Below are positions 15,892 to 23,088 of a DNA stretch of 64,000 bases, in pieces (position 1 is the stretch's first letter; each line of letters opens with the position of its first letter). The stretch comes from Plantactinospora endophytica (GTDB lineage: Bacteria > Actinomycetota > Actinomycetes > Mycobacteriales > Micromonosporaceae). Both the position numbers and the translations under genes were made by a program. A model generated the notes under the pieces. The model worked only from the letters and a program-made list of their open reading frames with translations, made no database searches and was not told the DNA's origin. The DNA lies in contig NZ_BONW01000002.1 of assembly GCF_016862915.1 (NCBI RefSeq), positions 310,001 to 374,000 on the forward strand. Direction: 5' to 3'.

Positions 15892-16569
15892 ATGAGTACC
15901 GCGACCATGGCGCGCAGCGACGCCGACATCCAGCGCGACGTGCTGGCCGAACTGGCCTGGGACGCCCGGGTACGTGCCAGCGAGGTGGGCGTGTCGGTGA
16001 AGAGCGGCATCGTGACCTTGACCGGCTGGGTGGACTGCTACGCCAAGAAGTGGGCCGCGGAACGCATCGCACACCGGATCCGGGGCAACCGGGCGGTCGC
16101 CAACGACATCGAGGTACGCCTCGCGGGCACCGCCGAACGCACCGACACCGACATCGCCACGGCGGCGGGCCGGGCGCTGGAGTGGGACTCCTTCGTCCCG
16201 GTGGAGCGGATCCAGGTGACCGCCGCGAACGGCTGGCTGACGCTGCGCGGCGAGGTCGACCGGGGCTACCAGAAGCGGGCCGCCGAGCGGGCGGTCCGCC
16301 GGCTCACCGGGGTACGCGGGGTGACCAACCTGGTCGCCGTACGGCCGACTGGTGACCTGAGCGAGCAGGACATCGAGCGGGACATCCGGGCCGCGCTGGC
16401 CCGGCGGGTCGACGTCGAGGCCGACCTGATCGAGATCGACGTCGACGGCGGGACGGTGGTGCTCACCGGCGAGGTGCGGTCCTGGCTGGAGCGGGAGGAG
16501 GCGGAACGGGTGGCCTGGGCGGCACCCGGCGTCGGCGACGTCGAGATCCGGCTCGTCCTCGCGACCTGA
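15892..16569 (+). CDS. Triple BON-domain protein
   Basis: A 225-residue protein composed of three BON domains (about 10-75, 80-150 and 155-225). Each has the pattern of an alpha helix, (V/I).V..G.VTLTG.V, and a second helix (GIVTLTGWVD, GWLTLRGEVD, GTVVLTGEVR). BON domains bind phospholipids or act in envelope stability (OsmY-like). There is no signal peptide or TM segment, so it is probably cytosolic or peripheral at the membrane. The ATG has GGGGAGGAGCGGCG upstream. It is followed by about 200 bp and a glycosyltransferase in the same direction. Confidence 0.9.
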   Translation: MSTATMARSDADIQRDVLAELAWDARVRASEVGVSVKSGIVTLTGWVDCYAKKWAAERIAHRIRGNRAVANDIEVRLAGTAERTDTDIATAAGRALEWDSFVPVERIQVTAANGWLTLRGEVDRGYQKRAAERAVRRLTGVRGVTNLVAVRPTGDLSEQDIERDIRAALARRVDVEADLIEIDVDGGTVVLTGEVRSWLEREEAERVAWAAPGVGDVEIRLVLAT

Positions 16570-16771
16570 CCGTGCGCGACCTGACCCGTACCCGCCCCGG
16601 ACGAGTCGCGGGACGCCCGCCGACCGAGGTGCCCGGCCGAGGAGCGTCCACGTCGATCCGCAGCGCCCGTCCGGCGGACCCGGTGCCCATGTCGCCCTGC
16701 ACGGCGAACGAGCCCGCGACCGCCACGACGCCGACCATCCGACCGTACGGCCCCGACGGGAGGACCCCTTC

Positions 16772-17884
16772 GTGACTGGTAACCCGTCCGAACGGGCGCA
16801 GCCGGACCGTCGGCTGCGTATCGCGATGGTGGTTCCTCCGTGGTACGAACTGCCGCCGCCCGGCTACGGCGGGCTGGAACAGGTCTGTTCGGCCCTGGTC
16901 GACGGGCTCGCGGCAAAGGGTCACCAGGTGACCCTCTTCGGCGCGGGTACCGGGACGGGCACCGCCGCGCGGTTCGTCGGTACGGTGCCGGAGTTGCAGC
17001 ATCACCGGCTCGGCCAGACCCTGCCGGAGTTGGCCCATCTGACCCGGGTCAACCGCATGATCACCCCTGATTCGTTCGACATCGTGCACGACCACACCAC
17101 CGTCGGGCCGTACGCCGCGGGCCGCTCGGTGCCGACGGTCAGCACCGTGCACGGCAAGCCGACCGGCGAACTGCGCGAGGTGCTCGGCGACGTCGACCCG
17201 CAGGTCGGTCTGGTGGCCATCTCGCACACCCAGCGCCGGCTGGCTCCCGAACTGCCCTGGGTCGCCACCGTGCACAACGGAATCTCGACCGCGAACCTGC
17301 TGACCAAGTCGGCGCCAGGGTTGGGGCCGGTGCTCTGGCTCGCCCGGTTCAGCGCGGACAAGGGCCCGGACCTGGCCATCGAGGCGTGCCGGGCGGCCGG
17401 CCTGCCACTGGTGCTGGCCGGCAAGTGCGACGAACGGTCCGAACGCCGCTATCTGGAGCAGGTGATCGAGCCGATGCTCGGCCCCGACGTCACCGTGCTG
17501 CGCAATCCCGACCGGGACGCCACGGTACGGCTGATGCTCGCCGCCCGCTGCCTGATCATGCCGATCCGCTGGGAGGAGCCGTTCGGCATGGTGATGGTGG
17601 AGGCGATGGCCACCGGTACCCCGGTGGTGGCGCTGAACCGGGGTGCGGTGCCGGAACTGGTCCGGTCCGGGGAGACCGGGCTGATCTGCGACGACCCGTC
17701 CGAGCTGGGACCGGCCCTGCGCGAGGTGGCCCAACTGGACCCGGCCGCCTGCGTGGCGCACGTCCGGCGGGCGTTCTCGGCCGAGCGGATGGCCGACGAC
17801 TACGAGCGGGTCTACCGGGCGTTCACCGAGCCGGGCCTGGCGCCGCCGGTCCGGCCGGAGTCGGCACCCACCGTCGCCTGGTGA
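16772..17884 (+). CDS. Glycosyltransferase family 4 protein
   Basis: A 370-residue GT-B fold enzyme. The N-terminal acceptor domain starts RIAMVVPPWYELPPPGYGG; its GG.E motif (GGLEQVCSAL) is typical of GT4. The C-terminal nucleotide-sugar domain has LWLARFSADKGPDLAIEA and the EPFGMVMVEAMATG E-x7-E motif. Family members transfer hexoses with retention of configuration. The donor and acceptor are not evident. The GTG start has GGGAGGACCCC upstream. It stands alone between a BON protein and the M50-type protein. Confidence 0.9.
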   Translation: MTGNPSERAQPDRRLRIAMVVPPWYELPPPGYGGLEQVCSALVDGLAAKGHQVTLFGAGTGTGTAARFVGTVPELQHHRLGQTLPELAHLTRVNRMITPDSFDIVHDHTTVGPYAAGRSVPTVSTVHGKPTGELREVLGDVDPQVGLVAISHTQRRLAPELPWVATVHNGISTANLLTKSAPGLGPVLWLARFSADKGPDLAIEACRAAGLPLVLAGKCDERSERRYLEQVIEPMLGPDVTVLRNPDRDATVRLMLAARCLIMPIRWEEPFGMVMVEAMATGTPVVALNRGAVPELVRSGETGLICDDPSELGPALREVAQLDPAACVAHVRRAFSAERMADDYERVYRAFTEPGLAPPVRPESAPTVAW

Positions 17885-18022
17885 CGAGGGCCGCGCGGCC
17901 GCCGGCTTGATTTCGGGTACGGCGTCAGCCACGCTCGCTGTCGGGTAGTGGACGCGAGCGCGCCAGGGTGGGATTGACGACTTACTCTGCATGCCGCAGC
18001 GGGACGCGGAGGGCAGGGGTCG

Positions 18023-21000
18023 GTGGCCGTCGTCGAGAGCCGGGTGAGCGTCTGGGAGGCGCTGGCCGGCCGTGCCCCGGGCCGGCCGCTGGGACCCGCC
18101 GACGCGGGGCTGTGGACCGCGGTCGTCGAACGGCTGAACCCGGCCCGGGCCCGCCCGGTGCTGCGCCCCGGCATCGAACGCGCCGAACTGGTCTCGGTAC
18201 GCGGCGTGCCGTACGTGATGCTCCGCTCGCCGGACTCCCGGGGCGACGCCTGCTATCTGCGGCTGTCCCCGGAGGAGTGGCGGCTGGCCGAGCTGATGGA
18301 CGGTACCCGCACCGTCGCCAGGCTGGTCGCCGAGTTCGCCCGGATCGCCGGCCGGCTGGCCCCGGACCAGGTCACCCGGGTCGTCGCCGACCTGGCCGGC
18401 AACCGGATGCTGGCCGAGTTGCCGGTGGACGCGTTCCGTCCGCTGGACCGGGTGCACCGCCGGCCCTGGCCGCTGCGGCTGGGCCGAGGGCTGGTCGCCG
18501 CCGCCAAGGGGCAGCGGACGGTGGTGGCCGACATCGACCCGCTGGTCGGCCTCGCCTACCGGGCCGGCGGGAAGCTGCTCTTCACCCGGGTCGCCGCCGG
18601 GCTGCTCGGCGTGGTGGCGGTCGCCGGGCTGCTGCTGTTCGGCTGGACCTGGTGGGCCGGTGACCAGTCGCTGTTCCTGACCGACGGCTCGTACGCGGCC
18701 GGCGCGGCGGTGCTGGTCGGGTTGAACGTACTCGCGCTGGCCTGCCACGAACTCGGGCACGCGCTCGCCACCAAACACGCCGGACGGCGGGTACCGGCCG
18801 CCGGCTTCCTGGTCTACTTCGGCATCCCGTCGGTCTTCGTCGACACCACGGACGTCTGGATGGCCGGCCGCCGGGCCCGGATGCTCACCACGGCCGCCGG
18901 TCCGGCCAGCGGACTGATCCTGGCCGGTCTCGCCCAACTCGTCGGGGTGCTCGTGCCGGAGGCGGCGCCGTGGACCTTCAAGCTCGCCTTCGCCTGGTAC
19001 CTCAACGCGCTGTTCAACCTCAACCCGTTCCTCGCCCTCGACGGCTACTACCTGCTGATGGACTGGTTGGAGATCCCCAACCTGCGTGCCCGTGGCCTGT
19101 CGTACGTGCTGGGCCGGCTGCGCCGCCGGCCGCCCCGCTGGGCGCAACTCGACCGCGAGGGCCGGATCGTCGCCCTGTACGGCACCCTGGCGCTGCTCTG
19201 GGTGGTCATCGCGGTGAACGTCGGCTGGCGGATCTGGACCGACCGGGTCGCCGGACTGGTACTCGGACTGTGGCGGTCCGGCTGGCCGGCCCGGCTGCTG
19301 CTGGTGGCCGTCGTCGCCGGGCTGGCCGCCCCGCTGGTCTACCTCGCCGCCGGCTGGCTGGCCCGGCGGATCCGTCGGATACGCGCCCGCTTGGCGGAGC
19401 GGCGACAACGACTTGACCTGCCCCGTCGACTGGACGCGCTGCGCAACTCGCCGCTCGGCCGGCTGCCCGGGGCGACCCTGACCGAGCTGGCCCACCGAGC
19501 CCGCTGGGTACGGCCGCGTACCGGTACCCAGTTGGTCTTCGCCGGTGCCGCGCAGTCGACCGTCTTCCTCGTGGTGGACGGCGCGATGGAGGGCCGGCAG
19601 CCGGGCGACCCGGGTGGCCTGGTCCGGCAGCGGCTCGGCCCGGGCGGGGTGATCGGGCTGGCCAACGTGCTGACCGGGACACCGGCCACACTGGACTGGC
19701 ACACCGCCGGGACCGAGCTGCTGGGACTGCCGGCCCCGGTGGTGGTCGCCGGGGTGGGGCCGCTGCCCGGCCCGCCGCCGAGCGAGCGGGCCGAGGCCGA
19801 GGCGTTGTTCGCCGAGGCGCCGGCACTGCGCGGGCTCAGCGCCGAGGACCGGATGGGCCTGGTCTCCGGTGCCCTGGTGTCGGCCGTCGCCGCCGGGGAC
19901 CCGATCGTGCTCGCCGGGCCGAACGACGCGGTGGTGGTGGCGTCCGGCGTGATCGAGCTGCCGGACGGCACGCAACTCCGCCGGGGCACGCTGATCGGCC
20001 CGGCCGGCGAGGGCGAGCCGGGCACGGTGGCCACCGCCCGTACCCCGGTCCGGGTCTGGGCCCTGCCGGCCGTCACCGGCCTGCCGCTGCTGTTCGGCAC
20101 CCCGGGCGCGCCGCCCCCACCGGCCGAGCACGGTACGCCGGGCAGCGCGCCCCGGGCCGGCGTACACCCCGTCGTCGGCTACCCGCCGCTGGCCGCGCCG
20201 CCGGGCCCGCCACCACCGAACGCGGACCCGGACGTCGACCGCCGGTTCGAGCGGAAGCTGTGGTGGCTGGTTCTGCTCTTCCTGCTGTTGGCCCTGCTCA
20301 GCACGGCGACCAACCTGATCCCCGGCCCGGCCTGGGCGGAGATGCCCAGTGACCGGGCGCTGCTGCACGCCGACTCCGGCCAGGTCGACGCGACCGTGGA
20401 CGGCCGGAGCGTACGGCTGGCCGAGGGGGAGCGGATCTACGTCTCCGAGGGCGACCAGCTCCGGGTACCGGTGCGGTCCCGCGCCGTGCTGACCTTCCGG
20501 GGCGGCGGGACGGCGACGTTCTGTGCCGGTTCCCGGGCCGTGCTCGGTCCACTCTGGAGCGACGGGACTAGGACGGTCACCCCGCACAGCCGGCTGACCC
20601 TCGACAGCGGCCGGATGATCGCCGACACCGAGAGCCCGAGTACCGCCTTCGCACCGCTGTCGCTGCTGGTCGACCGGACCGGCGGCGGGATCAGCAACCG
20701 GGGCGCGGCACACTACGCGGCCTGGCCCCGGGGCGCCGAGGTCGCCACCGGCGAGGTACGCGTCGCCGGGGTACGCCAGCCGGAACACCGCCGCCCGTTG
20801 GCCTGCGGCGGCGGTACGGCACCCGACGGCGGAGCCTCCCCGACCGGTACCCCGGGCGACCCGGAGTCGACCACTCCCGGACTGCCGTCGCCGACGCCCT
20901 CGCCGACGCCGTCCCCGACCGCGTCGCCCACCCCCGGGCCGACCCCGACCCTCACTCCCGGCAGCACCCCGACCCGGACCCCGAGTACGCCCCCGGGCAC

Positions 21001-21445
21001 CGTCCCGACCACCGGCCCGCCACCCACTCCGCCGCGCACCACACCCCCACCCACCACGGCCCCGCCGACGACGCCCGCCAACCGCCCACCCGTGATCAGT
21101 TGGCAGCGGGACCCGGGCGGGACGCTGAGCCAACAGACCGCTAGCGGCGCGTGCACCGAACACCCGACCACGACCACGGTCGGAGTGAACGTCTCGGACG
21201 ACCAGGACACCGGCCGAACTCTGGTGGTCACCGTGCACTGGAGCGGCTTCGCCAGCGGGTCGGCCCGGATGTCCCCGGACGGTGCCTACTACGGCACGGT
21301 CGGCCCGGTGCCGTTCCCCGGGCAGAACAACGGTGGCGGCACGCTCAAGGTCTGGGTCACCGCGACGGACAGCGAGAAGGCGACGTCCAGCCTCGACGGC
21401 AGCCCGATCACGGTGGCCGGCTGTTCGATCGTGACCATCAGGTGA
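18023..21445 (+). CDS. PqqD-like / M50 site-2-type protease / cNMP-like / FecR-like multidomain membrane protein
   Basis: An 1140-residue protein of unusual build. Residues about 75-140 resemble a PqqD-type peptide-binding wing (YLRLSPEEW..AELMDG). A polytopic zinc-protease domain follows (TM1 at about 187-210; H242-E-L-G-H246; N334-P-F-L-A-L-D340-G, the third zinc ligand), so the M50 active site is intact. After a basic helix come two regions resembling cyclic-nucleotide-binding folds (about 490-580 and 595-690), a Pro linker and a TM at about 746-768. Outside the membrane there is a FecR-like domain (about 775-920), a Pro/Thr linker of about 100 residues and a C-terminal Ig-like domain with two cysteines. 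The GTG has GGAGGGCAGGGG upstream. It resembles the 'putative peptide zinc metalloprotease' proteins of RiPP and NHLP export loci, but the extracellular part is new to me. Confidence 0.8.
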   Translation: MAVVESRVSVWEALAGRAPGRPLGPADAGLWTAVVERLNPARARPVLRPGIERAELVSVRGVPYVMLRSPDSRGDACYLRLSPEEWRLAELMDGTRTVARLVAEFARIAGRLAPDQVTRVVADLAGNRMLAELPVDAFRPLDRVHRRPWPLRLGRGLVAAAKGQRTVVADIDPLVGLAYRAGGKLLFTRVAAGLLGVVAVAGLLLFGWTWWAGDQSLFLTDGSYAAGAAVLVGLNVLALACHELGHALATKHAGRRVPAAGFLVYFGIPSVFVDTTDVWMAGRRARMLTTAAGPASGLILAGLAQLVGVLVPEAAPWTFKLAFAWYLNALFNLNPFLALDGYYLLMDWLEIPNLRARGLSYVLGRLRRRPPRWAQLDREGRIVALYGTLALLWVVIAVNVGWRIWTDRVAGLVLGLWRSGWPARLLLVAVVAGLAAPLVYLAAGWLARRIRRIRARLAERRQRLDLPRRLDALRNSPLGRLPGATLTELAHRARWVRPRTGTQLVFAGAAQSTVFLVVDGAMEGRQPGDPGGLVRQRLGPGGVIGLANVLTGTPATLDWHTAGTELLGLPAPVVVAGVGPLPGPPPSERAEAEALFAEAPALRGLSAEDRMGLVSGALVSAVAAGDPIVLAGPNDAVVVASGVIELPDGTQLRRGTLIGPAGEGEPGTVATARTPVRVWALPAVTGLPLLFGTPGAPPPPAEHGTPGSAPRAGVHPVVGYPPLAAPPGPPPPNADPDVDRRFERKLWWLVLLFLLLALLSTATNLIPGPAWAEMPSDRALLHADSGQVDATVDGRSVRLAEGERIYVSEGDQLRVPVRSRAVLTFRGGGTATFCAGSRAVLGPLWSDGTRTVTPHSRLTLDSGRMIADTESPSTAFAPLSLLVDRTGGGISNRGAAHYAAWPRGAEVATGEVRVAGVRQPEHRRPLACGGGTAPDGGASPTGTPGDPESTTPGLPSPTPSPTPSPTASPTPGPTPTLTPGSTPTRTPSTPPGTVPTTGPPPTPPRTTPPPTTAPPTTPANRPPVISWQRDPGGTLSQQTASGACTEHPTTTTVGVNVSDDQDTGRTLVVTVHWSGFASGSARMSPDGAYYGTVGPVPFPGQNNGGGTLKVWVTATDSEKATSSLDGSPITVAGCSIVTIR

Positions 21446-21455
21446 GGAGTTCTTA

Positions 21456-21671
21456 GTGCTCTGTTGGTTCTGTCCGAAGGCGGCGCGGGGCGGGTGCCGG
21501 TTCTGTGGGCGTGGCGTTTGCGAGGACCACGCCCGGTTCGGCCCGTACCTGTTGCAGGTGCACCGGTCGGAGGCGCGGGGCCGGGCCGAGGCGCTCGTCG
21601 TCGAGGACGCGCTCCAGTGCGGCACCTGCCGGCCGCGCCCACAGCCGGTACCCATGCCCGAGCTGGACTGA
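21456..21671 (+). CDS. Small Cys-rich, zinc-finger-like protein
   Basis: A 71-residue protein with CWFC, CRFCGRGVCEDHA and CGTC motifs: seven cysteines and two histidines arranged like a B-box or DUF2180-type zinc ribbon. The GTG start is 10 bp behind the M50 gene with AGGAG between, so they are probably cotranslated. There is no TM segment. The pattern of Cys pairs followed by CEDHARFGPYL suggests a metal-binding adaptor. The function is unknown; its place between the M50 protein and the leader-like protein suggests it belongs to the same system. Confidence 0.7.
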   Translation: MLCWFCPKAARGGCRFCGRGVCEDHARFGPYLLQVHRSEARGRAEALVVEDALQCGTCRPRPQPVPMPELD

Positions 21672-21784
21672 CCTCCCGCACCGCGGGACGACCTCGCCAC
21701 CGGGGGACGGCTGGGCGACGGAGAGTGTTCGGGATGGCGGTCCACGGTTAGCCTGAGAACGGCCGGCGTGCTGAGGAGGCGATC

Positions 21785-22756
21785 GTGAGCGACTTCGACG
21801 ACGTACTGGAGCGCCTGGTCACCGATCCGGCGTTCGGGGCCGCGCTCGCGGCGGATCCGGTGAACGCCCTCGCCGGCTACCGCCTCGACGCCGACGAACT
21901 GGCCCTGCTCCAGCTCCAGATCGGCGGCGACACCGCCGGCCAGCACGGCGTCGAGACCCGGGCCAACCAGTCGAGCCTGTTCGGCATGTTCGCCCCGCTC
22001 GCCGGGCTGGCCGGCGCGCTGCCCGGAGTGGGTGAGGTCACCACCCCCGGGCTCGGCCCGGCTCCGGCCGGTGGCCTGGGTGCCGCCGCGCCCGGCGCGG
22101 TGCAGGGGTTCGGTGCGGCGGCCGGTCCCGGCGGGGAGGTGCCGCCGCTGGCCGAGGTACCGGGCTGTGCCGCGCCGGTCGGGCCGGGAGCGTCGGTCGC
22201 GCCGGTGGGCGGGCTGACCGGGCTCGGTGACGAGATTGGCCGGGAGATCGGGTCGGCCACCGACAGCGCACTGGCGCAACCGACCGGCGGGCTGGCCGGC
22301 GCGCTGGCCGATCCGGACGCCGGGCTCGCCGCCGCGCTGGCGAACGCCGAGACCGGATTCGGGTCGGCGCCCGGGACCGCACCGGCGGCCGAGGTGGGCT
22401 TCGGACCGGCTCCCGAGGTGGGCTTCGGACCGGCCGAACCGCCACCCGGTGACGCCGAGCCGGCCGTACCCGATGGGTATCGGACCAGGGTCGACGCCGA
22501 CGGTGACGGCGACTGGGACCGGCACACGCTCCAGGGCCGGGCCGACGGTGGCGTGGACATCCTGGTCGACCACGACCGGGACGGCCGTACCGACTTCGTC
22601 GGGCACGACCTGGACGCCGACGGGCTGGTCGACATCAGCGAGTACGACAAGAACCGCGACGGCTTCTTCGAGAAGCGGATGTACGACGACGACGGCGACG
22701 GCTGGATGGACCGGACGGTACGGGCCGAACCACCGCCGGCCGACACCACGTACTGA
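21785..22756 (+). CDS. Leader-like N-terminus (Gly-Gly) plus DxDxDG-repeat protein, candidate M50 substrate
   Basis: A 323-residue protein with three parts. Residues 1-48 (VLERLVTDPAF..ALAADPVNAL..YRLDADELALLQLQIGG) resemble LigA-, IniB- or Nif11-like leader regions and end in G47-G48, as in double-glycine leaders. Residues 49-235 are Gly/Ala/Pro-rich with repeats such as EVGFGPAP. Residues 237-315 hold five acidic loops (DADGDGDWD, DHDRDGRTD, DLDADGLVD, DKNRDGFFE, DDDGDGWMD) like calcium-binding EF-hand or thrombospondin type-3 loops. There is no classical signal peptide. The GTG has GAGGAGGCGATC upstream. It lies 113 bp behind the Cys-rich gene. A role as exported or processed substrate is inference. 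Confidence 0.65.
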   Translation: MSDFDDVLERLVTDPAFGAALAADPVNALAGYRLDADELALLQLQIGGDTAGQHGVETRANQSSLFGMFAPLAGLAGALPGVGEVTTPGLGPAPAGGLGAAAPGAVQGFGAAAGPGGEVPPLAEVPGCAAPVGPGASVAPVGGLTGLGDEIGREIGSATDSALAQPTGGLAGALADPDAGLAAALANAETGFGSAPGTAPAAEVGFGPAPEVGFGPAEPPPGDAEPAVPDGYRTRVDADGDGDWDRHTLQGRADGGVDILVDHDRDGRTDFVGHDLDADGLVDISEYDKNRDGFFEKRMYDDDGDGWMDRTVRAEPPPADTTY

Positions 22757-23088
22757 CCCGCGCCGGCTGCGGCGATCGGCAGCGGCGGGTTGGCCCGGTC
22801 CGATCCGGTGTCCGAGGTGGAATCCGGTCCGGCGTTCGGGGTGGAATCCGATCCGGTGTCCGAGGTGGGATCCGGTCCGGTGTGCGAGGTGGAATCCGGA
22901 CCGGGGTGCTCGCCAGAGTCGGGACAGCACGCCGCGCGGCGCCGTGGCATTATGCCGTCCGACGCACCGTGCTCCGCCGTCCGGCGCATCGGGTCCGGCC
23001 GTCCGGCGCACCGCGCGTGGCCGTCCGGCGCACCAGGACTGGCGCGCGTCCCGCTGACCCCTGACGATGGCGACAGGAGGTGGTCGCC
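22757..23088. other. Intergenic region made of minisatellites
   Basis: 332 bp without a gene. Most is repetitive: the four 24-bp units listed separately, then three or four imperfect copies around CCGTCCGGCGCA at about 22977-23035. No promoter for the following ATPase could be identified. Confidence 0.6.
22808..22903. repeat. Four 24-bp tandem repeats after the DxDxDG-repeat gene
   Basis: Units of the form GTGTCCGAGGTGGAATCCGG plus TCCG start at 22808, 22832, 22856 and 22880 with two to five differences each. The array begins about 50 bp after the stop codon. Confidence 0.8.

What the first reader, a model, noticed from the sequence alone, without database searches (positions are those of the whole stretch)
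18023..22756. PqqD/M50-protease megaprotein, Cys-rich protein and Gly-Gly leader-like DxDxDG protein form a candidate new maturation system
Three adjacent plus-strand genes share features seldom found together. The first fuses a PqqD-like peptide-binding wing, a complete M50 zinc-protease site (HELGH, NPFLALDG), cNMP-like domains, a TM helix and a large extracellular FecR/Ig-like part. The third starts with a segment like RiPP/Nif11/LigA-type leaders (DPAF..ALAADP..AL..Y.LDADELALLQLQIGG), ending in Gly47-Gly48, followed by a secreted-looking low-complexity body and five calcium-binding-type loops. A zinc-finger-like protein sits between. The simplest reading is that the PqqD part recognises the leader, the M50 site or a partner cuts it, and the acidic repeat protein is delivered to or across the membrane. 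No modifying enzyme or PCAT transporter is present, so it does not fit known RiPP or NHLP classes.
Basis: partly seen in the sequence, partly recalled or inferred. Interest (0 to 1): 0.85.

Follow-up and report, generated by a model that had tools for sequence, protein, structure and literature searches.

The report
Leader-guided membrane protease for large proteins
An actinobacterium carries a three-gene unit in which a membrane protease with a peptide-recognition domain travels with a tiny zinc-finger-like protein and a large calcium-loop protein that begins with a peptide-antibiotic-type leader, so cells may use this machinery to mature big proteins as well as small antibiotics.

Summary
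18023-21445 encodes a PqqD-like (RRE) + M50 protease (HELGH, NPFLALDG). 21456-21671 encodes a 71-aa Cys-rich protein. 21785-22756 encodes a leader domain, a disordered linker and a five-loop DxDGDG domain. The leader resembles the Os1348/NHLP clan (36.4 bits, cut-off 40; one orthologue 43.2). Gly47-Gly48 is not conserved (QxGG in 11 of 21); the shared landmark is R-x-[S/T/N]-[K/Q].

Among 121 family genomes, all 51 with a strong leader hit (>=98 bits) carry the protease, adjacent at 48 of 53 places; three genomes with weaker leader hits lack it. A second version (FHA, kinase) has leaders on large proteins. Short leader peptides sit near related proteases in other phyla. The Cys-rich partner reaches Methanothrix.

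In 65 loci of one genus (Actinoplanes), the protease active site is intact beside leader-bearing substrates (15 of 15) and destroyed beside leaderless ones (0 of 18); two genomes hold both. Independent losses are few.

Best reading: a leader-guided M50 system maturing large proteins. Cleavage, its site, export and function are inferred; no protease model could be obtained. It is a new variant of RRE-M50 peptidases such as daptide MpaP.

The parts
18023..21445 (+). P1: PqqD-like/RRE + M50 membrane metalloprotease, cNMP-like domains, TM segment and long C-terminal part (1140 aa)
18128..18538 (+). PqqD-like (RRE) domain, residues about 36-172
   Evidence: profile A7 finds PqqD 3g2b E 0.0015 and PaaA 5ff5 E 0.02; PF05402 in 8 of 31 aligned proteins
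18746..18760 (+). HELGH zinc site, residues 242-246
   Evidence: intact in 15 of 15 leader-bearing Actinoplanes loci, lost in 18 of 18 leaderless-substrate loci
19022..19045 (+). NPFLALDG motif, residues 334-341
19520..19705 (+). cNMP-binding-like domain, residues 500-561 (weak here, strong in some homologues)
   Evidence: E 0.0099; homologues down to 6.8e-49
20246..20332 (+). hydrophobic (TM) segment, residues 742-770
   Evidence: hydropathy
21456..21671 (+). CysR: 71-aa Cys-rich, probably zinc-binding partner, ending in MPELD
21785..22756 (+). P3: leader-bearing acidic protein (323 aa)
21785..21985 (+). Os1348/NHLP-type leader domain, residues 1-67
21923..21928 (+). Gly47-Gly48 (present here, not conserved)
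   Evidence: QxGG in 11 of 21 aligned rows
21959..21970 (+). R59-A-N-Q62, the window's form of the R-x-[S/T/N]-[K/Q] motif that ends the leader domain
   Evidence: 21 of 21 rows: ANQ 10, TSK 7, VSK 2, TNQ 1, VTK 1; R-x-[S/T]-K in several distant short peptides
22466..22738 (+). C-terminal beta domain with five DxDxDG loops, residues 228-318

Best explanation
The unit is a leader-guided protein-maturation system. P3 is made with an Os1348/NHLP-type N-terminal domain ending near R-x-[S/T/N]-[K/Q]. The PqqD-like (RRE) domain of P1 binds this leader region and presents it to the M50 zinc site in the membrane, which removes the leader. That frees the low-complexity linker and the DxDGDG (calcium-binding-type) beta domain at the envelope. 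CysR is a standing partner of the protease; it probably binds zinc and helps to assemble it or present substrate. The cNMP-like domains here, and FHA plus a Ser/Thr kinase in the sister version, would gate the protease. Shown: gene identities, conserved linkage, leader-protease co-occurrence, joint loss of leader and active site. Inferred: binding, cutting, cut site, zinc in CysR, gating, envelope destination.
For: Type-1 leader (>=98 bits) and P1 orthologue (>=53% identity) among 121 family genomes: 51 with both, 5 with P1 only, 0 with leader only (the Fisher p of 9e-29 ignores relatedness). 48 of 53 leader places start 2.7-5.8 kb after the start of the P1 match on the same strand; the other 5 are on other contigs of P1-bearing genomes. 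Across the phylum sample: 6 of 40 NF038399 places lie within 5 kb of an M50 place, 0.063 expected; 5 without the window's genome. Second version: 10 of 12 fetched family loci of the divergent protease have a nearby leader; the two leader families align at hhalign 97.5%, E 7.8e-12. Streptomyces L200, L201, L205 and unnamed L141 likewise. Short NHLP peptides within 5 kb of related proteases: Elusimicrobia L203, three in tandem (56.9 bits, cut-off 40, for the one scanned), Gammaproteobacteria L204 (38.8), Chloroflexi L219 (38.2). Joint loss in 65 Actinoplanes loci: leader 15 of 15 HExxH intact; leaderless P3 0 of 18; no P3 in the region 24 of 32. Genomes G414 and G419 each hold one intact+leader locus and one dead+leaderless locus. 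Precedent: MpaP is described as an RRE-dependent intramembrane peptidase removing the daptide leader (PMC10036551, passages), EpeP as an M50 protease sufficient for EpeX production (PMC10885120, passages).
Against: No cleavage, binding or secretion was measured. No model of P1 or of the complex was obtained (jobs failed; machine silent). Of 13 family genomes with weaker leader hits (22-53 bits), 10 have the divergent protease but G041, G066 and G074 have no M50 match. An intact P1 persists without P3 in the region in 24 Actinoplanes loci, 19 of them with CysR, so leader cutting is not its only role. Joint loss rests on few events: leader changes 4, active-site changes 5, all the latter within one leaderless 46-row clade; the independent-pairs test is not significant and leaderless branches make up 58% of tree length (0.58^5 = 0.066). 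Only 21 of 80 loci found by the M50 profile had a detectable leader, and among proteobacterial ones only L204. Some distant leaders lie on the opposite strand (L190, L196, L204, L219). The leader clan also occurs without M50. The window leader is below both curated cut-offs (36.4 of 40; 23 of 48). A C39-peptidase gene elsewhere in the genome leaves another cutter possible.
Confidence: 0.58

Rival explanations
1. Docking without cutting: the leader domain is an anchor that holds P3 on the RRE of P1, and the M50 site has another substrate.
For: NHLP leaders are described as structured recognition modules (PMC12455567, abstract). Several short relatives end within a few residues of R-x-[S/T]-K, leaving hardly any core to release. 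24 Actinoplanes loci keep an intact active site without P3 in the region.
Against: If the leader were only an anchor, the zinc site should not be lost together with it; 18 of 18 leaderless-substrate loci have lost it while keeping the rest of P1.
Confidence: 0.15
2. Regulated intramembrane proteolysis: P1 is a cNMP-controlled site-2-type protease in a signalling pathway, and P3 or CysR regulates it.
For: M50/S2P family and cNMP, FHA and kinase partners. In L148 an Os1348-like segment lies in a small protein beside a sigma-factor-like gene and the protease (labels by eye).
Against: No sigma or anti-sigma family among P1, P3 and the ten flanking proteins scanned. Type-1 P3 proteins lack a clear TM segment.
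Confidence: 0.12
3. Double-Gly export: P3's leader is cut after Gly48 by the C39-peptidase protein encoded elsewhere in the genome, and P1 does something else.
For: GG stands at 47-48 in the window; one PF03412 match, 795-aa frame, on contig C28.
Against: QxGG in only 11 of 21 relatives; the C39 gene is not linked; leader and M50 active site decay together. Whether the C39 gene co-occurs with leaders was not tested.
Confidence: 0.05
4. An ordinary RiPP: P3 is a giant precursor whose body is modified by enzymes encoded elsewhere.
For: The leader clan is that of Os1348/PosA, a modified precursor (PMC12636437, passages).
Against: No RiPP modifying enzyme among P1, P3 and the ten flanking proteins scanned. 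The body ends in a predicted folded DxDGDG domain, unlike a short core.
Confidence: 0.05
5. Neighbours by descent only: a syntenic block with no joint function.
For: In many Micromonosporaceae loci flanking genes are conserved too.
Against: The genes stay together in other contexts (L073; L181, where the leader gene is upstream), the pairing recurs in a divergent version and in other phyla, and leader and active site decay together.
Confidence: 0.03

Closest known systems
Daptide RRE-M50 peptidase MpaP (NF041824)
   Same: RRE fused to M50 intramembrane-type protease; leader removal assigned to it (PMC10036551, passages); window P1 aligns over RRE+M50, 116.3 bits
   Different: Below the equivalog cut-off of 300; no daptide gene set in the neighbourhood scanned; cNMP-like and long C-terminal parts; CysR partner; large-protein neighbour
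EpeP/YydH/LiaK epipeptide protease (NF058609)
   Same: M50 protease beside a leader-type precursor
   Different: 44.4 of 225 bits; no short EpeX-like precursor in the unit
Os1348/PosA precursors (NF038399, PF14407, PDB 6lk7)
   Same: Same N-terminal domain clan; for the related PflA no typical double-Gly site is seen (PMC12636437, passages)
   Different: Os1348 is an 85-aa precursor (PMC7726476, abstract and two sections) with modifying enzymes; no protease genes found near the pfl cluster; P3 is 323 aa with a folded DxDGDG domain. The 6lk7 sequence is only a chance-level hit (E 0.71)
NHLP / Nif11 precursors with double-Gly leaders and ABC export (Haft 2010, PMC2887384, passages)
   Same: Long leader preceding a variable region
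   Different: GG not conserved; no peptidase-containing exporter linked, though one C39 match lies on another contig
Site-2 proteases (3b4r, MJ0392)
   Same: HExxH and NPxxxDG among hydrophobic segments; profile hit E 0.017
   Different: RRE, cNMP or FHA additions and leader-bearing neighbours

Membership tests
Daptide RRE-M50 peptidase (MpaP) | RRE + M50 with HExxH and NPxxxDG | tested here: met
Daptide RRE-M50 peptidase (MpaP) | NF041824 equivalog cut-off, 300 bits | tested here: not met
   116.3 bits
Daptide RRE-M50 peptidase (MpaP) | short precursors plus decarboxylase, aminotransferase and methyltransferase genes next to it | tested here: not met
   none among P3 and the ten flanking proteins scanned; genes further off in the window were not scanned
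YydH/LiaK/EpeP | NF058609 cut-off, 225 bits | tested here: not met
   44.4 bits
Os1348 / NHLP clan | NF038399 domain cut-off, 40 bits | tested here: inconclusive
   window 36.4; orthologues L068 43.2, L073 37.0; short peptide L203 56.9
Os1348 / NHLP clan | short precursor peptide | tested here: not met
   P3 is 323 aa; 233-429 aa in the 20 relatives listed with it
NHLP with double-Gly leader and peptidase-containing exporter | conserved GG and linked C39 exporter | tested here: not met
   QxGG in 11 of 21; none linked; one C39 match on another contig
RiPP | post-translational modification of a core | not testable with these tools
   needs mass spectrometry
RRE (PqqD-like) domain | sequence kinship with PqqD/RRE | tested here: met
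   (by profile; the window protein alone does not hit PF05402)
RRE (PqqD-like) domain | winged-helix fold binding the leader | not tested
   structure jobs failed or machine silent
M50 / site-2 protease | HExxH and NPxxxDG catalytic motifs | tested here: met

The most novel reading that the evidence does not exclude
A general leader-addressed protein-processing route, built on a PqqD-M50 protease and a zinc-binding partner and found from Methanothrix to Chloroflexota and Actinomycetota. It uses the same kind of R-x-[S/T]-K address on very different clients: roughly 40-55-aa polybasic peptides, short NHLP peptides and calcium-loop or other proteins of up to about 1000 aa, with cNMP or FHA/kinase control. 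RiPP leaders would then be one branch of a wider sorting code for whole proteins.
Probability: 0.3. Interest if true: 0.92.

Novelty: new variant of a known kind. Interest (0 to 1): 0.78.

Why it matters
RRE-M50 proteases and NHLP-type leaders are each known from small peptide natural products. Here they are paired, with a conserved Cys-rich partner, on large proteins with no modifying enzyme among the flanking proteins scanned. If the leader is cut, leader-peptide logic serves general protein maturation in bacteria. It would also offer a candidate protease class for Os1348-type leaders, whose pfl/pos clusters lack a protease gene (PMC12636437, passages). The Actinoplanes loci, where leader and active site are lost together, make the idea directly testable. 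My literature searches (open-licence PubMed Central only) listed no paper that I recognised as describing this pairing; I saw listings and the passages named here, not whole texts.

Tried and rejected
Gly-Gly cleavage: rejected as a family feature. Linked PCAT export and daptide or epipeptide membership: defining features not met; a C39 match exists on another contig, so PCAT export is kept as a rival. IniB N-terminal domain: only weak hits (L073 E 0.21, L204 E 0.042). PDB search with the leader profile: five hits, all at chance level, Os1348 6lk7 among them at E 0.71. Foldseek with the P3 model: nothing at E<=0.001, best TarM E 0.028 and OspA-like sheets; a 56-residue borosin precursor chain (8t1t_B) at rank 40 is too weak to use. 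Hits to repetitive de novo trefoils were set aside as bias. Independent-pairs and branch-length tests of joint loss did not reach 0.05. One search scanned a wrong stretch and bears on nothing.

Choices and rows dropped: 'strong leader' means >=98 bits; the 13 genomes with 22-53 bits are told in the Against line. A1 holds the 21 P3 proteins of the first loci whose called start fitted a pattern; others (L094, L099, L101, L102) were left out. A3 holds 17 of the 34 P1 relatives, chosen by hand for spread; A2 has 5 rows. The wide tree left out M50 matches under 300 residues or E over 1e-25. Of 70 Actinoplanes places in 67 genomes, 65 were scored (60 fetched, 5 already held); the 5 left out are in G389, G390 (two pieces), G416 and G422. 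In the 88-row tree 'leader' means at that locus: G015, G024 and G055 have a leader elsewhere in the genome.
Full report
What is there. The window (G000:C2:310001-374000 of a 9.68-Mb genome) carries three plus-strand genes at 18023-22756. The family is Micromonosporaceae judging by named relatives. P1 (1140 aa) joins a PqqD-like domain, an M50 zinc protease with HELGH (242-246) and NPFLALDG (334-341), weak cNMP-like domains, and after a hydrophobic segment (742-770) a long C-terminal part. CysR (71 aa) starts 10 bp after P1 stops. P3 (323 aa) follows after 113 bp with an AGGAGG site. P3 is modelled as a helical N-terminal domain, a long disordered linker and an ordered beta C-domain that holds the DxDxDG loops.

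Which families. P1 aligns to the daptide RRE-M50 protease model over residues 73-413 (116.3 bits, cut-off 300) and to YydH/LiaK (44.4 of 225). The PqqD assignment rests on relatives: PF05402 in 8 of 31 aligned proteins, and a domain profile that finds PqqD 3g2b at E 0.0015 and PaaA at E 0.02 (that PaaA bears an RRE is recalled). P3's first 43 residues match NF038399 (Os1348/NHLP clan) at 36.4 bits, cut-off 40; orthologue L068 reaches 43.2 and L073 37.0. Among 21 aligned P3 proteins QxGG occurs in 11, while V-E-x-R-x-[S/T/N]-[K/Q] occurs in all 21. The Gly-Gly site is therefore not a family feature.

Conservation of the unit. In 121 family genomes the P1 orthologue (53% identity or more) was found in 56 and a strong type-1 leader (>=98 bits) in 51, all within the 56. 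Forty-eight of 53 leader places lie downstream on the same strand; five are on other contigs of genomes that have P1. Thirteen more genomes have weaker leader hits (22-53 bits): ten carry the divergent protease, three (G041, G066, G074) have no M50 match; in G041 the hit is a short peptide. G092, of the window's genus, has neither P1 nor leader at these thresholds. CysR is very well conserved (75-100% identity in the loci compared) and accompanies related proteases far away: Methanothrix/Methanosaeta L192 and L195, an uncultured archaeon L197, Acetothermia L191, Anaerolineaceae L194. In a phylum sample of 246 genomes CysR was found in 20, of which 18 had an M50 match; 18 of 22 CysR places lie within 5 kb of one.

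The pairing recurs. A divergent version (31-39% identity) has an N-terminal Cys motif, FHA, PqqD and M50 (FHA in 7 of 31 aligned proteins), usually followed by a Ser/Thr kinase and preceded by one or two large proteins that begin with a homologous leader. Some of these carry DxDxDG repeats by eye (weak TSP_3 hits in 2 of 3 scanned), and the 5 checked end in a Gly-rich hydrophobic segment. Ten of 12 such family loci have the leader nearby; L088 and L137 do not. hhalign links the two leader families at 97.5%. Streptomyces L200, L201 and L205 show the same. Starting instead from the leader, 6 of 40 NF038399 places in the phylum sample lie within 5 kb of an M50 place, 0.063 expected by chance; without the window's own genome, 5. 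The other 34 places have no M50 match within 5 kb. In other phyla short frames of about 60-90 aa with the same domain sit within 5 kb of related proteases, some on the opposite strand, and several end within a few residues of R-x-[S/T]-K; one of the Elusimicrobia triplet L203 was scanned and scores 56.9 bits. Of 80 loci returned by the M50 profile, 21 had a detectable leader.

Joint loss of leader and active site. All 67 genomes of the genus I call Actinoplanes have P1. I scored 65 loci. Beside a leader-bearing P3: HExxH intact in 15 of 15. Beside a leaderless P3, whose C-domain remains: intact in 0 of 18 (REYAR, REWAR, HELAR, HELSR, RELGR, REFAR). With no P3 in the fetched region: intact in 24 of 32. 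A genome-wide search found type-1 leaders in 15 of 67 genomes, at these same loci. Genomes G414 and G419 hold one of each kind. Fisher for 15/0 against 0/18 is 1e-9 but ignores relatedness. On the tree there are 4 changes of leader and 5 of active site, the latter all in one leaderless clade; the independent-pairs test is not significant and the branch-length argument gives 0.066. I read this as strong in pattern, modest in independent events.

Neighbourhood. Flanking proteins scanned are a two-component pair, a trypsin/PDZ protease, a BON protein, a glycosyltransferase, an ABC ATPase with TOBE, a NADAR protein, a Ser/Thr kinase, a patatin and an acyltransferase: no RiPP modifying enzyme, no C39 exporter. 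One C39-peptidase match (795-aa frame) lies on contig C28, so the genome is not without such a protein.

Mechanism. The simplest account is that the RRE binds the leader, M50 removes it, and the C-domain is released at the envelope. When the leader is lost the protease activity is no longer needed while the rest of P1 and P3 stays, which suggests that P1 and P3 also work together after cutting. Binding, cutting, the cut site (I favour the R-x-[S/T/N]-[K/Q] region over Gly48), zinc in CysR, regulation and destination are inferences. MpaP and EpeP set the precedent (PMC10036551 and PMC10885120, passages only). PosA (Os1348) and PflA show that this leader clan works in clusters without a protease gene and, for PflA, without a typical double-Gly site (PMC12636437, passages).

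Status. Both halves have known relatives, so this is a new variant of a known kind rather than a new kind. What is unusual is the substrate (large, with a folded domain), the Cys-rich partner kept from archaea to bacteria, and the two regulatory builds. No structure of P1 or of the complex could be obtained.

Noticed in passing
L085-L087, L089, L090, L132-L136, L141, L200, L201, L205: Second version: divergent PqqD-M50 (with Cys motif and FHA where scanned), in most loci with a Ser/Thr kinase, and one or two large leader proteins.
   Followed up: partly
L243, L245-L249, L251-L254, L257, L262: Beside CysR (and M50 where the contig shows it) in unnamed lineages of the phylum: roughly 40-55-aa strongly basic peptides with a KK[IV]xP start and an [R/K]-V-[S/T] motif; no NCBIfam hit for the two scanned. 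L250 has two related peptides without the motif. Possibly a new precursor family.
   Followed up: partly
L192, L195, L197, L191, L194: CysR near PqqD-M50 in archaea and deep bacterial lineages; no NHLP leader was detected in the three archaeal loci.
   Followed up: partly
L143, L142: Divergent PqqD-M50 next to a leader; in L143 the leader heads a 1021-aa protein with weak peptidoglycan-hydrolase hits. Upstream genes look like contractile-tail baseplate proteins (by eye only).
   Followed up: no
L148:6307-7298: Sigma-factor-like gene followed by a small protein whose C-terminal part resembles the Os1348 domain, near M50+CysR (labels by eye).
   Followed up: no
L123:8624-8938, L131:8271-8579: Free-standing 102-104-aa leader-domain proteins with R-x-S-K, in genomes (G071, G016) that also have the divergent protease elsewhere.
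   Followed up: no
L124, L125, L128: Os1348-like peptides next to radical-SAM-like (CNSKC[TSN]FC) genes and no M50 match: other uses of the leader clan (labels by eye).
   Followed up: no
L130:93-281: G041: type-1-like leader (53 bits) on a peptide of about 62 aa at a contig end, without M50 in the genome search.
   Followed up: partly
L092, L093, L095: Proteins of 149-175 aa matching the DxDGDG C-domain, without a leader hit or an M50 hit in the fetched locus.
   Followed up: no
L299, L310, L311, L315, L317, L319: P1 copies with YELGH or QE[FC]GH and no P3 in the region: further active-site losses.
   Followed up: partly
G000:C28:458450-458821, minus strand: One C39-peptidase (PF03412) match in a 795-aa frame elsewhere in the window's genome.
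   Followed up: no
window 16463-23011, minus strand: A 2182-aa open frame runs antisense across the whole unit; taken as a high-GC artefact, not a gene.
   Followed up: no
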